A stretch of 64,000 bases of DNA. Origin: an uncultured bacterium. Its GTDB lineage: Bacteria > Cyanobacteriota > Vampirovibrionia > Gastranaerophilales > Gastranaerophilaceae. The stretch covers positions 124,001 through 188,000 of the forward strand of contig CASEYP010000019.1 in NCBI GenBank assembly GCA_949292185.1, in the 5' to 3' direction. Shown one piece after another: positions 57,865 to 61,055 of this stretch. The notes beneath the pieces are model-generated. The model was given only the letters and a program-made list of their open reading frames with translations. It did no database searches and had not been told where the DNA came from. Each line of letters begins with the position of its first letter. Position 1 is the stretch's first letter. The position numbers and the translations under genes are program-made.

Positions 57865-59235
57865 ATGTTCGGAGTAATACTAGCAGGGGGTTCAGGAAGT
57901 AGATTATGGCCATTATCAAGAGAATTATATCCTAAGCAACTCTTGAATTTATATGCTGAAAAAAGCTTATTACAATCTACTTTTGAGAGATTAAATAAGT
58001 TTATTCCTGCCGAAAATATTATCAGTGTTGCAAATACTAAACATCAAGCTAATGTTAAAATGCAACTTGGGAAATTGAGTGAAAATTCAATTATCCTATC
58101 TGAACCGATTTCTAAAAACACTGCTCCTGCTATTGCTCTTAGTGTAAAATATCTTATCGAAAATAATAAATCAGACGAAACTGTTCTTGTTGTTCCATCT
58201 GATTTGCTAATCGAAGATAACGAAAAATTTATTCAAACAATAAAAGAAGCTCAACCGCTTGTTGATAAGGGTTATATTGTAACTTTCGGGATAAAACCTA
58301 ATTACCCTGAAACAGGATTTGGTTATATTTGCGCAGATAATAATATCGTTAAAAGTTTCACTGAAAAACCTGACAAACAAACCGCTGAAGAATATATTAA
58401 AAAATCAAATTATTTCTGGAATAGCGGAATTTTTATGTTTAAAGCTTCTGTTATGATGAAAGAATTTGACAAATATTGTCCTGAAATTTCTGCAATAATC
58501 AATAAAATTAACTGTTCCGATAAAAATATTCCATTTACTGAATTTGAAAAAATGCCATCCATTTCAATCGATTATGCGGTTATGGAAAAAAGTGATAATA
58601 TTGCAATGGTTGAATTAAAATCTAACTGGAAAGATTTAGGTTCTTGGAAATCTATTTATGAAGTTAGTCCAAAAGATAAGAATAACAATGTTTTTGTCGG
58701 TCACGTTATCGATAAGGATTCTAAAAATTCCTTTGTTTACGCTTCATCAAAACTTGTAGCAACTATCGGACTTGAAGATACCGTTGTTATAGAAACAGAA
58801 GATGCCATTTTAGCTTGTAAAAAAGATCATACCGAAGATGTTAAACAAATTTATGAAACACTAAAAGAGCAACACGATGATACCCAAAAGGTTCATAAAA
58901 CCGTTTACAGACCTTGGGGATTTTATACAGTGATTGCAGAAGGAAAAGGTTTCCAAACAAAGATTATTCACGTAAATCCGGGACAACAATTATCTGTTCA
59001 ATCACATAACCACAGAAGTGAACATTGGGTTATGTTATCAGGTATGGCAAAAGTCGTTCTGGAAGGGGAAGATCATATTCTATCTCCAGGACATAGTATT
59101 GATATCCCGGTAAAAGCTATCCATTCATTACAAAATCCTTTTGAAGAAGACTTGGAAATTATTGAAGTTCAAAAAGGTGATATACTTTCTGAAGATGATA
59201 TTATCAGATATGAAGATATCTACGGTCGTGTATAA
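57865..59235 (+). CDS. manC: Mannose-1-phosphate guanylyltransferase / mannose-6-phosphate isomerase
   Basis: The 456-residue protein makes GDP-mannose. It starts with the nucleotidyltransferase signature VILAGGSGSRLWPLSRELYP, continues with VLVVPSDLLIEDN and FTEKPDKQTAEEYI, and ends in a cupin domain (YRPWGFYTVI, HRSEHWVMLSGMAKVVL with metal-binding His) typical of bifunctional enzymes. It would supply mannose or derived sugars for surface glycans. A SD (AGAAGGAG) precedes the ATG. Confidence 0.93.
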   Translation: MFGVILAGGSGSRLWPLSRELYPKQLLNLYAEKSLLQSTFERLNKFIPAENIISVANTKHQANVKMQLGKLSENSIILSEPISKNTAPAIALSVKYLIENNKSDETVLVVPSDLLIEDNEKFIQTIKEAQPLVDKGYIVTFGIKPNYPETGFGYICADNNIVKSFTEKPDKQTAEEYIKKSNYFWNSGIFMFKASVMMKEFDKYCPEISAIINKINCSDKNIPFTEFEKMPSISIDYAVMEKSDNIAMVELKSNWKDLGSWKSIYEVSPKDKNNNVFVGHVIDKDSKNSFVYASSKLVATIGLEDTVVIETEDAILACKKDHTEDVKQIYETLKEQHDDTQKVHKTVYRPWGFYTVIAEGKGFQTKIIHVNPGQQLSVQSHNHRSEHWVMLSGMAKVVLEGEDHILSPGHSIDIPVKAIHSLQNPFEEDLEIIEVQKGDILSEDDIIRYEDIYGRV

Positions 59236-59306
59236 GTCTTGATTTTCAATGGTCTTTAGGGTTTGTAACATTATGTAAATAATATATCCTTTTTATATAA
59301 AATTGA

Positions 59307-59330
59307 GCAATTTTGGATTTTCCAAATTGT
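59307..59330 (+). terminator. Possible terminator after manC
   Basis: CAATTTTGGA and TCCAAATTG (within 59307-59330) pair with one bulged T. Only a short T-run follows, so it is a weak candidate; the -35 of the next promoter overlaps it. Confidence 0.4.
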
Positions 59331-59355
59331 TTAATATAATATAACGAGGTATAAT
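59327..59355 (+). promoter_or_regulatory. Strong promoter before the 59.36-59.69 kb region
   Basis: TTGTTT (59327-59332), 17-base spacer, consensus TATAAT (59350-59355). The predicted transcription start falls at about 59361-59363, right on the ATG of the 61-residue ORF, so the transcript is leaderless or is a non-coding RNA. Confidence 0.65.
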
Positions 59356-59362
59356 TATTATC

Positions 59363-59548
59363 ATGACCGAGAAGACTGAACAAAACTTAAAAGTAATTAG
59401 AAGAGATGCTCCAGAGACGAGAGAACAAGAAGTTGTTGACAAAAATCGGTTAACTCGGCAGACAAATCCGATTGTAAGAAAGTTGTTGGACTTCAGTTTA
59501 TCTGACAAAACCTGCAAATTTTCGGTTAAAGATTTGTTTAAAAGATAG
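59363..59548 (+). CDS. Small 61-residue ORF, coding or RNA uncertain
   Basis: The frame encodes MTEKTEQNLKVIRRDAPETR and then a basic, helical stretch (KLLDFSLSDKTCKFSVKDLF). The start lies where the promoter (59327-59355) would begin transcription and no SD is visible. Codon use (two CGG and a CAG) is less AT-biased than its neighbours. AATCGG (59444-59449) pairs with CCGATT (59468-59473), so an RNA function is possible. It is followed by the GC-rich stretch at 59549-59693. Confidence 0.4.
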   Translation: MTEKTEQNLKVIRRDAPETREQEVVDKNRLTRQTNPIVRKLLDFSLSDKTCKFSVKDLFKR

Positions 59549-59693
59549 GCTCATGTAGCACGGTTTTATGAGGATCGACACGCTGGGTAATTCTTGCGGT
59601 TTGTGAAGGGCTGAAACGTAATTTTACTTCGTTTCCCCACTTGGGGGGCGATTTAAAAATAAGTTGTCGGTAGTTTTTTAAAGTTTTTAATTT
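59549..59693 (+). other. GC-rich, hairpin-rich intergenic stretch
   Basis: This 145-base segment is visibly richer in G and C than its surroundings. It has CTCAT (59550-59554)/ATGAG (59568-59572), GAAACG (59613-59618)/CGTTTC (59630-59635) and CCCC/GGGG (59635-59638, 59643-59646). It may be the 3' half of a non-coding RNA from the promoter at 59327, or a leader for the gene at 59694. It does not match the tmRNA, SRP RNA or RNase P motifs that I know. Confidence 0.4.
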
Positions 59694-60209
59694 ATGTATG
59701 AAATAAAAAAACAAATATATTTGGATTTTACAAAAAATCAGAAATCCGCATTATGTAATTATTTGCGAGCTTTGGTAAAAAAATCAATGGATTTAACTGT
59801 TGATGAAATTTTCGAAAGCTTCGTCGCTGATGAAAAGTATTATTTGGAATTACATTGTTCAAGATTTGAATTTTTGGAAGATATAATCGATAATAATGAT
59901 TTTAAAAGCGATACCATAAAATATTTAAAAGAATGCAAAAAATATTATGAATACAAAGAAAAACAACGACCAATAATAGAAGCAAATAAAGAATATGAAA
60001 AACAAAAACGAAAATTCCTTCAAGAAGTAAAAATGTCTAAAGAAGCACCGACAAAGAAACAACTTTATTATTATGATAGACTTTGCAAAAAATATGATAT
60101 AGAGAAAAAAGAATTAACATCAAAACTTGAAGCCCGTAATGAAATTGATAGAATAATAACGGAACATCAATCAGATTATAAAATAAATCCCGAAACAAAC
60201 GAGGAATAA
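59694..60209 (+). CDS. Hypothetical basic protein, 171 residues
   Basis: The protein has an N-terminal acidic part and a mostly helical, Lys/Glu-rich middle (DTIKYLKECKKYYEYKEKQR). Near residues 117-135 APTKKQLYYYDRLCKKYDIE resembles a short motif seen in several phage and plasmid proteins, but no family can be assigned. There is no clear ribosome site. The stop is three bases before prmC, so they are co-transcribed. Confidence 0.65.
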   Translation: MYEIKKQIYLDFTKNQKSALCNYLRALVKKSMDLTVDEIFESFVADEKYYLELHCSRFEFLEDIIDNNDFKSDTIKYLKECKKYYEYKEKQRPIIEANKEYEKQKRKFLQEVKMSKEAPTKKQLYYYDRLCKKYDIEKKELTSKLEARNEIDRIITEHQSDYKINPETNEE

Positions 60210-60212
60210 ATA

Positions 60213-61055
60213 ATGATACTTATACCGGATATTGTAAAAATACTAACAGATTCAGGAATAGAACCAAACGAAGCAAATGTTGAAGTTAAACTTCTCATTG
60301 AACATTTTGCGGGATATTCGCTGGTTGATATTTTAATGGGTAAAAAGCTTGACGAAGAAAAGCTTAAACTTGTAGAAGAAAAAGCAAAATATAGAGCTAA
60401 AACAAAAGAACCTATACAATATATTATTGGCAGTGCAGATTTTATGGGTGAAAAATTTTTAGTAAATCCATCCGTTTTAATTCCTCGAGATGAAACAGAA
60501 ATTCTTGTTAGAAAAGCTATTGAAATCATTGAGAAAAATAACTTTAAACAAGCTCTTGATATAGGTACAGGTTCAGGTTGTATAGCTTGTATGGTTGCAA
60601 AATTAACATCTTGCCAAATTATAGGCCTTGATATCTCAACAGAAGCAATACATACGGCTTTTTCTAATATGGAAAGAATGGAACTTTTTAACAAAGCAAC
60701 ATTTAGAAAATCTGATATATATTCAAAAATCAGACCTGAAGAAAAATTTGATATTATAATTTCTAATCCTCCATATATTCCGCCAAAATTAAAAGCAACT
60801 ATTCAAAAGGAAGTGTCTTTTGAACCTGAGAATGCACTTTATACAAATGATGAAAAAGGGTTAGAATTTTATGAAAAAATAATAAAAGATGCACCAAAAT
60901 TTTTAAATCCAAAAGGCTATGTAATTTTTGAACTTGGTATAGGGCAAAGTCAAGATGTTGCACAGATTTTCAACACTTATCATTTCACAAATATTCAAAT
61001 AGTAAAAGACCTTGCAAATATTGATAGGGTAATTTTTGCAAATTTAAACAACTAA
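60213..61055 (+). CDS. prmC: Peptide chain release factor N5-glutamine methyltransferase
   Basis: The 280-residue enzyme methylates the GGQ glutamine of release factors. It has a N-terminal helical domain, ALDIGTGSGCIACMVAKL (SAM site), IIGLDISTEAI, and the catalytic IISNPPYIPPKLKA. The C-terminal part has FELGIGQSQDV. Its last four bases overlap the end of convergent bioC. Confidence 0.94.
   Translation: MILIPDIVKILTDSGIEPNEANVEVKLLIEHFAGYSLVDILMGKKLDEEKLKLVEEKAKYRAKTKEPIQYIIGSADFMGEKFLVNPSVLIPRDETEILVRKAIEIIEKNNFKQALDIGTGSGCIACMVAKLTSCQIIGLDISTEAIHTAFSNMERMELFNKATFRKSDIYSKIRPEEKFDIIISNPPYIPPKLKATIQKEVSFEPENALYTNDEKGLEFYEKIIKDAPKFLNPKGYVIFELGIGQSQDVAQIFNTYHFTNIQIVKDLANIDRVIFANLNN

What the first reader, a model, noticed from the sequence alone, without database searches (positions are those of the whole stretch)
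59327..59693. Strong promoter driving an RNA-like, unusually GC-rich region of unknown class
A near-consensus promoter (TTGTTT, 17, TATAAT) starts a transcript at about 59362 with no room for a ribosome site before the 61-residue ORF. The ORF has atypical codons (CGG, CAG). The next 145 bases are GC-rich with at least three hairpins, unlike the AT-rich genome around. This could be one non-coding RNA of about 330 bases rather than a protein gene plus spacer.
Basis: partly seen in the sequence, partly recalled or inferred. Interest (0 to 1): 0.5.

Follow-up and report, generated by a model that had tools for sequence, protein, structure and literature searches.

The report
Structured mRNA folding over small gene
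A small gene of gut bacteria is copied into an RNA whose folded shape has been kept by evolution, with its two ends paired over the spot where ribosomes should load, so the message probably controls its own translation.

Summary
The finding is real, but it is neither a plain non-coding RNA nor a plain gene plus spacer. Window 59341-59635 (about 295 nt) looks like one conserved structured RNA with a genuine 61-codon ORF inside, in a Gastranaerophilales-type bacterium (non-photosynthetic Cyanobacteria). The ORF is protein-coding: dN/dS 0.40, found in 44 of 46 genomes of the genus and 240 of 383 of the order. In only 3 of 52 genera (55 of 383 genomes) it is followed by a conserved RNA domain. There, compensatory changes support a closing helix that pairs the leader, including a GAGG ribosome site, with the 3' end, two helices inside the ORF, and a three-helix domain after the stop. 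Codon choice, and apparently some amino acids, follow the RNA pairing. No Rfam family matches. Likeliest mechanism: fold-back occlusion of the ribosome site, as in hok, AapA and icaR mRNAs, here for a non-toxin core gene. Structure well supported; transcription and function inferred.

The parts
59341..59635 (+). Core of the structured RNA (leader, ORF, post-stop domain, 3' strand of the closing helix)
   Evidence: Seven helices, 54 pairs, 92.2% of cells paired in 44 sequences; simulations on the tree. Transcript ends not mapped.
59341..59356 (+). H1, 5' strand of the long-range closing helix; contains the GAGG site
   Evidence: coordinates
59346..59349 (+). GAGG, probable Shine-Dalgarno site, 13 nt before the ATG
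   Evidence: Invariant in the 50 sequences of A3; six bases before ATG in genus g27 (L086, L087)
59363..59548 (+). ORF of 61 codons, conserved small charged protein of unknown function
59366..59374 (+). H3, 5' strand (codons 2-4)
   Evidence: partner 59451-59459
59384..59388 (+). H4, 5' strand (AACTT, codons 8-9); invariant, so not proven
   Evidence: partner 59430-59434
59430..59434 (+). H4, 3' strand (AAGTT, codons 23-24)
59451..59459 (+). H3, 3' strand (codons 30-33)
59478..59486 (+). H2, 5' strand (codons 39-42)
   Evidence: partner 59514-59523
59514..59523 (+). H2, 3' strand (codons 51-54)
59548..59552 (+). P1, 5' strand, beginning at the last base of the stop codon
   Evidence: partner 59608-59612
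59561..59577 (+). P2 hairpin (59561-59564 with 59574-59577)
59581..59598 (+). P3 hairpin (59581-59586 with 59593-59598)
59608..59612 (+). P1, 3' strand
59620..59635 (+). H1, 3' strand (contains ACTTCG)
   Evidence: coordinates
59327..59355 (+).
   Evidence: altered in L010 and L022

Best explanation
The locus is a structured messenger RNA. Supported by comparison: the leader around the GAGG site pairs with a segment about 70-90 nt after the stop codon, closing the whole ORF into a loop; helices inside the coding sequence and a three-helix domain after the stop complete a compact fold, kept by compensatory change in three genera. Inferred: in the folded RNA the ribosome site is hidden, so translation of the 61-aa protein is limited to the time before the 3' end is made, or needs an event that opens the closing helix (a factor bound to the post-stop domain, perhaps the protein itself, or 3' processing). 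What opens it is unknown.
For: Pairing maintained: 92.2% of cells against 37-47% with partners slid. Simulations on the tree: observed pairing beats 300 of 300 for H1, H2, P1, P3, 297 for H3, 295 for P2. Coupled changes on a tree, e.g. H2 pair UA/CG 5 changes on each side and 5 for the pair. Leader against 130 nt after the stop: -21.6 kcal/mol (shuffled -11.1) in 53 loci, but -9.2 (shuffled -8.9) in 24 loci of genera lacking the domain. G-U at one H1 position in 42 of 50 fits RNA, not a DNA repeat. Paired codon positions use locally rare codons, a preference weaker or absent in the 24 loci without the domain. The ORF stays protein-coding, so control of its translation is a natural role.
Against: No transcript or expression data. 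The window's own H1 is among the weakest (-14.2 kcal/mol, z about -2) and its RNA is not unusually stable. No single H1 or H3 pair is significant in the pairwise test; H1 double-change cells are reached by 10 of 300 simulations. GAGG is 13 nt from the ATG, rather far. GAGGTATAAT is also kept in several genera without the domain, so it has another use. No general alternative (open) fold was found. Helices inside the ORF go beyond what hiding a ribosome site needs.
Confidence: 0.55

Rival explanations
1. Dual-function RNA: besides coding, the folded RNA itself acts, alone or bound to the encoded protein.
For: Structure extends through the ORF (H3, H2); post-stop loops are nearly invariant; single-copy core gene in 34 of 34 good genomes of the genus (two copies only in G003).
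Against: No trans partner known; the domain was found with no other gene; H1 covers the ribosome site, which points to control in cis.
Confidence: 0.2
2. RNA stability element: the closed 5'-3' ends mainly protect the mRNA from, or mark it for, nucleases.
For: H1 would pair the 5' end; icaR 5'-3' pairing is an RNase III substrate (abstract, PMC3868564).
Against: Does not explain the helices inside the ORF or the conserved post-stop loops.
Confidence: 0.1
3. Attenuator or processing element for the downstream 171-aa gene and prmC-like gene.
For: In several genera ORF, 171-aa gene and prmC-like gene lie in a row; the domain lies between the first two in the window.
Against: The domain stays with the ORF where the downstream genes are absent from the fetched stretch or on the other strand (e.g. 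L113, L116, L127; L118, L123, L135). No terminator-like site was found in 59200-60300.
Confidence: 0.08
4. Untranslated RNA: the first reader's pure non-coding RNA.
For: Strong structure; weak spacing of the ribosome site.
Against: dN/dS 0.40 and in-frame length changes; protein conserved in genera without the domain.
Confidence: 0.03
5. DNA inverted repeat, such as a mobile element or operator pair, rather than an RNA helix.
For: The two H1 strands form an inverted repeat flanking a small ORF.
Against: Kept G-T positions break DNA symmetry; one copy per genome except G003; no viral contig carries the core pattern.
Confidence: 0.02

Closest known systems
hok and AapA type I toxin mRNAs (5'-3' long-distance interaction)
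   Same: Full-length mRNA folds back so that its 3' end pairs near the 5' ribosome site; structure involves the coding region (AapA3: an SD-masking hairpin within the ORF); translation off until a change (PMC6733600 passages; PMC5502269 passages).
   Different: The protein here is hydrophilic, not a hydrophobic toxin; core single-copy gene; antisense RNA and 3' processing untested; no Rfam match.
icaR mRNA of Staphylococcus aureus (3'-UTR pairing with the Shine-Dalgarno region)
   Same: 3'-UTR segment complementary to the ribosome site of the same mRNA (PMC3868564, abstract and one discussion section).
   Different: Different gene; icaR uses a UCCCC(UG) motif, here ACUUCG-type; here additional covarying helices in the ORF and after the stop.
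RNAIII and other structured RNAs with a short ORF; tmRNA
   Same: One folded RNA that also carries a short ORF; RNAIII also has 5'-3' contacts (PMC5502269 passage).
   Different: tmRNA is present elsewhere in the genome and none was found in the window; no evidence of action in trans.

Membership tests
hok/AapA-type I toxin mRNA | 5'-3' pairing that covers the ribosome site | tested here: met
   H1, by comparison only; occlusion itself is inferred
hok/AapA-type I toxin mRNA | Small hydrophobic, membrane-active toxin (recalled feature) | tested here: not met
   53 proteins: GRAVY -1.26 to -0.66; best 19-residue mean hydropathy 0.49 at most
hok/AapA-type I toxin mRNA | Overlapping antisense RNA | not tested
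   No RNA data; the scan gave one minus-strand promoter-like site near the leader, chance level
hok/AapA-type I toxin mRNA | Activation by 3' processing | not testable with these tools
   needs RNA experiments
icaR-type 5'-3' UTR pairing | 3'-UTR complementary to the Shine-Dalgarno region of the same mRNA | tested here: met
icaR-type 5'-3' UTR pairing | RNase III cleavage of the duplex | not testable with these tools
   needs RNA experiments
tmRNA | tRNA-like domain / match to RF00023 | tested here: not met
   No ARAGORN or Rfam hit in the window; tmRNA lies at G000:C33:28869-29271
6S RNA | Match to RF00013 | tested here: not met
   No hit in the window; a sub-threshold candidate lies at G000:C2 (42.4 bits, cut-off 46.4)
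Any Rfam 15 family | Covariance-model match | tested here: not met
   0 at gathering score in the window; 0 at E<=5 in 59230-59760
Riboswitch | Ligand-binding aptamer controlling an expression platform | not testable with these tools
   The post-stop domain could be an aptamer, but it is 3' of its gene and was found with no other gene

The most novel reading that the evidence does not exclude
A coding structural RNA in which the messenger's own fold is the regulated or functional object: RNA helices dictate synonymous codons and even amino acids of a conserved core protein, and the folded RNA, perhaps bound by that protein, works as a switch or ribonucleoprotein. It would be a non-toxin counterpart of hok, so far seen in three genera only.
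Probability: 0.25. Interest if true: 0.75.

Novelty: new variant of a known kind. Interest (0 to 1): 0.55.

Why it matters
Fold-back of a bacterial mRNA over its own ribosome site is known from few examples (a 2017 review, PMC5502269, passages seen, names icaR, hok and RNAIII; AapA is in PMC6733600). Here it is conserved across dozens of species in what looks like an ordinary gene, with a built-in contrast: related genera have the same gene without the domain or the 5'-3' pairing (24 loci). That makes the purpose and origin of whole-mRNA structure testable, and adds an RNA element with no Rfam match in uncultured gut bacteria.

Tried and rejected
Local alternative hairpin (3' strand of H1 pairing with sequence just downstream): seen in some loci, not general (median z -0.17, 6 of 53 below -2; rough, the site was mislocated in some rows, e.g. 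L081). Upstream extension of H1: weak (203 of 5000 permutations reach it; also mislocated in some rows, e.g. L008, L018). Stability of a single sequence as evidence: not unusual. Read-through of the stop into the domain: rejected because many relatives have further stops at once; L078 and L122 are exceptions. Known RNAs. Protein function: no hits in Pfam, NCBIfam, PHROGs, PADLOC, one non-significant PDB match (E 0.32), low-confidence helical model (pLDDT 60), so no fold search was run. Phage carriage of the core pattern: no hit.

Results against my reading: the pairwise test supports only 3 pairs at E<0.05 (two P1, one H2). H1 double-change cells are reached in 10 of 300 simulations and P2 in 16 of 300. 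H4 is invariant and unproven. Of the shuffle measures, further pair types were reached by 42 of 500. One of 24 loci without the domain (L108) shows strong leader/downstream pairing (z -5.1). In the swap test 28% of foreign 3' ends on average pair better than the own one, and that test does not correct for relatedness. Helix definitions came from these same alignments, so paired percentages lean upward.

Rows dropped: of 53 sequences, A3 holds 50 (L025, L026, L030 left out: shortened or altered domain); A5 and A6 hold 44 (also without L002, L024, L029, L105, L106 as near-duplicates and L078 for its lost stop). L056 (contig end) and L128 (duplicate of L015) were never in the set. R1 hits exclude three genomes of the genus (G020, G021, G034), those of the shortened variants.

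Full report
Where it is. The window lies in a 1.9-Mb genome (G000:C19); the window is 31.3% GC. Among 45 loci from titled genome records, those whose title names a group are mostly Candidatus Gastranaerophilales, Melainabacteria or Cyanobacteria MAGs, including Zag_111; one is titled Muribaculaceae and many only 'bacterium'. The ORF sits between a manC-like gene (57865-59235) and a 171-aa gene followed by a prmC-like gene (the labels manC and prmC are recalled from the sequences and come from no call).

The ORF is a gene. The single sequence finds it in 34 of 59 relatives, that is 34 of 36 of its genus. A profile of 35 homologues finds it in 44 of 46 genomes of the genus, and in 34 of 34 at least 90% complete and at most 5% contaminated. 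In an order-wide draw it is found in 240 of 383 genomes at E<=0.1, 35 of 52 genera; all but one weak match are in one family. In 53 sequences carrying the RNA or a shortened variant, lengths are 58-66 aa, all in frame, and dN/dS is 0.40 overall and 0.39 for 254 pairs at 70-99% identity; by alignment column it is 0.21 at 1-8, 1.5 at 25-32, 0.14 at 33-40 and 0.20 at 57-64. No family was recognised.

The RNA. DNA after the stop matches in 27 of 59 relatives, in G006 with 88% identity over 52 bases where the protein is 61% identical. Aligning leader, ORF and 3' region showed a long-range helix H1 between 59341-59356 and 59620-59635, two helices within the ORF that vary (H3, H2), one that hardly varies (H4), and a domain P1-P2-P3 beginning at the stop codon. 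In 50 sequences five helices have 94.3% of cells paired against 35-46% when partners are slid and 87.0% in shuffles. In 44 sequences all seven have 92.2% against 37-47% slid and 86.4% shuffled. Fewest changes on a tree built without the helix columns are coupled: H2 pair UA/CG 5 on each side and 5 for the pair; P2 pair 3/3/3; two P1 pairs 6/7/7 and 8/8/10.

Tests against relatedness. A null that keeps the tree and each column's number of changes was simulated 300 times. Observed pairing exceeds all 300 for H1, H2, P1 and P3, all but 3 for H3 and all but 5 for P2; H4 cannot be tested. In an R-scape-like pairwise test written here, 3 pairs reach E<0.05 and all 3 are in the structure (two P1, one H2); the next two in rank, P2 at E 0.07 and P3 at E 0.73, are in it too. 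No H1 or H3 pair is significant alone.

The closing helix. The 28-nt leader pairs with the 130 nt after the stop at -21.6 kcal/mol on average against -11.1 for shuffled 3' sequence in 53 loci (median z -4.9; 49 of 53 below -3). In 24 loci of genera without the domain it is -9.2 against -8.9 (1 of 24 below -3, L108). In 0 of 20,000 random re-pairings did the sum reach that of own 5' and 3' ends; this does not correct for relatedness. By eye, L010 changes the leader after GAGG to AACGACAG and its 3' strand to CTGTAGGTTTCTCGTTAC, which still pair; L025, L026 and L030, whose domain is shortened or altered, still keep a matching 3' strand (all three below z -3). The window's own helix is a weak member (-14.2 kcal/mol, z -2.1).

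RNA shaping the protein. Paired codon positions use codons rare in nine neighbouring window genes: E3 GAG 49 of 49 (8% there), K40 AAG 53 of 53 (17%), T50 ACC 45 of 53 (9%). In the 24 loci without the domain the preference is weaker or gone where the residue is kept (K40: AAA 12, AAG 8; F53: TTT 12, TTC 11). L58, also shifted (TTG 49 against TTA 14, TTG 6), lies in no helix I defined. H3 joins codons 2-4 to codons 30-33: L042 has GATGAGAAA/TTTCTCATC, L103 GACAAGAAA/TTTCTTGTC, L022 GAAAAGA/TCTTTTC, so amino acids at both ends appear to change together to keep the helix.

Distribution. The covariance model of the post-stop domain hits 55 of 383 genomes of the order draw, 3 of 52 genera: 38 genomes of the window's genus (of 41), 16 of g22 and 1 of g24; in a class-wide draw that partly repeats the same genomes, 42 of 382, 3 of 97 genera. 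Comparing coordinates, 54 of the 56 matches abut the ORF; the other two (G030, G087) are cut off by contig ends. In 9 of the 24 fetched loci without the domain the 171-aa gene starts within about 10 nt of the stop. The domain stays with the ORF where downstream genes differ. I read it as an element gained in a subset of the family and tied to this ORF; the order of gain and loss was not tested.

Promoter. TTGTTT-17-TATAAT is present, but TATAAT is inside H1 and is lost in L010 and L022, where TTGTTT is altered too. Genus g27 has GAGG six bases before ATG and no TATAAT there. I favour a start just upstream of 59341, giving the mRNA a GAGG site. Against this, GAGGTATAAT is conserved in several genera without the domain, so a second, internal start cannot be excluded.

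Mechanism and comparison. Because H1 covers the ribosome site, the likeliest role is translational control by fold-back, as for hok and AapA mRNAs (PMC6733600, passages; PMC5502269, passages) and icaR (PMC3868564, abstract and one discussion section). It is not filed with the toxin families, since the protein is not hydrophobic. What opens the helix is unknown; the post-stop domain, with near-invariant loop bases, is the natural sensor or protein-binding site, which is inference. In my paper searches (listings only, apart from the passages and sections named and a term check of PMC11109978) I saw no report of this RNA; subscription papers and preprints are not covered.

Noticed in passing
59307-59330: Upstream inverted repeat GCAATTTT...AAATTGT, conserved in most of the genus; in one group of relatives (L018, L019, L023, L058) both arms differ together (GCAC...GTG). 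It could be an operator, a -35 region or an RNA hairpin.
   Followed up: partly
about 59262-59305: Conserved upstream block with TGTAAC/ATGTAAAT-type repeats and TATATA, also seen in genera without the RNA domain; possibly the true promoter or a regulator site.
   Followed up: no
59694-60209: 171-aa gene of unknown function (no Pfam or NCBIfam hit above cut-off), often next to the ORF and a prmC-like gene in relatives.
   Followed up: partly
L078, L122: The ORF's stop is displaced and the protein runs a few residues into the RNA domain.
   Followed up: no
L108: A locus of another genus (g21) without the domain whose leader nevertheless pairs well with sequence after the stop (-19.2 kcal/mol, z -5.1); chance or an independent case.
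   Followed up: no
G000:C2:148123-148298 (L190): Sub-threshold 6S RNA candidate (42.4 bits against a cut-off of 46.4).
   Followed up: no
genera g30 and g36 (L089-L091, L093, L094): The same small gene has a quite different leader; in g36 a TATAAA-like stretch abuts the ATG, which may be leaderless.
   Followed up: no
L018, L020, L098: Here the 3' strand of H1 could instead form a local hairpin with sequence just downstream, a possible open state in some species only.
   Followed up: partly
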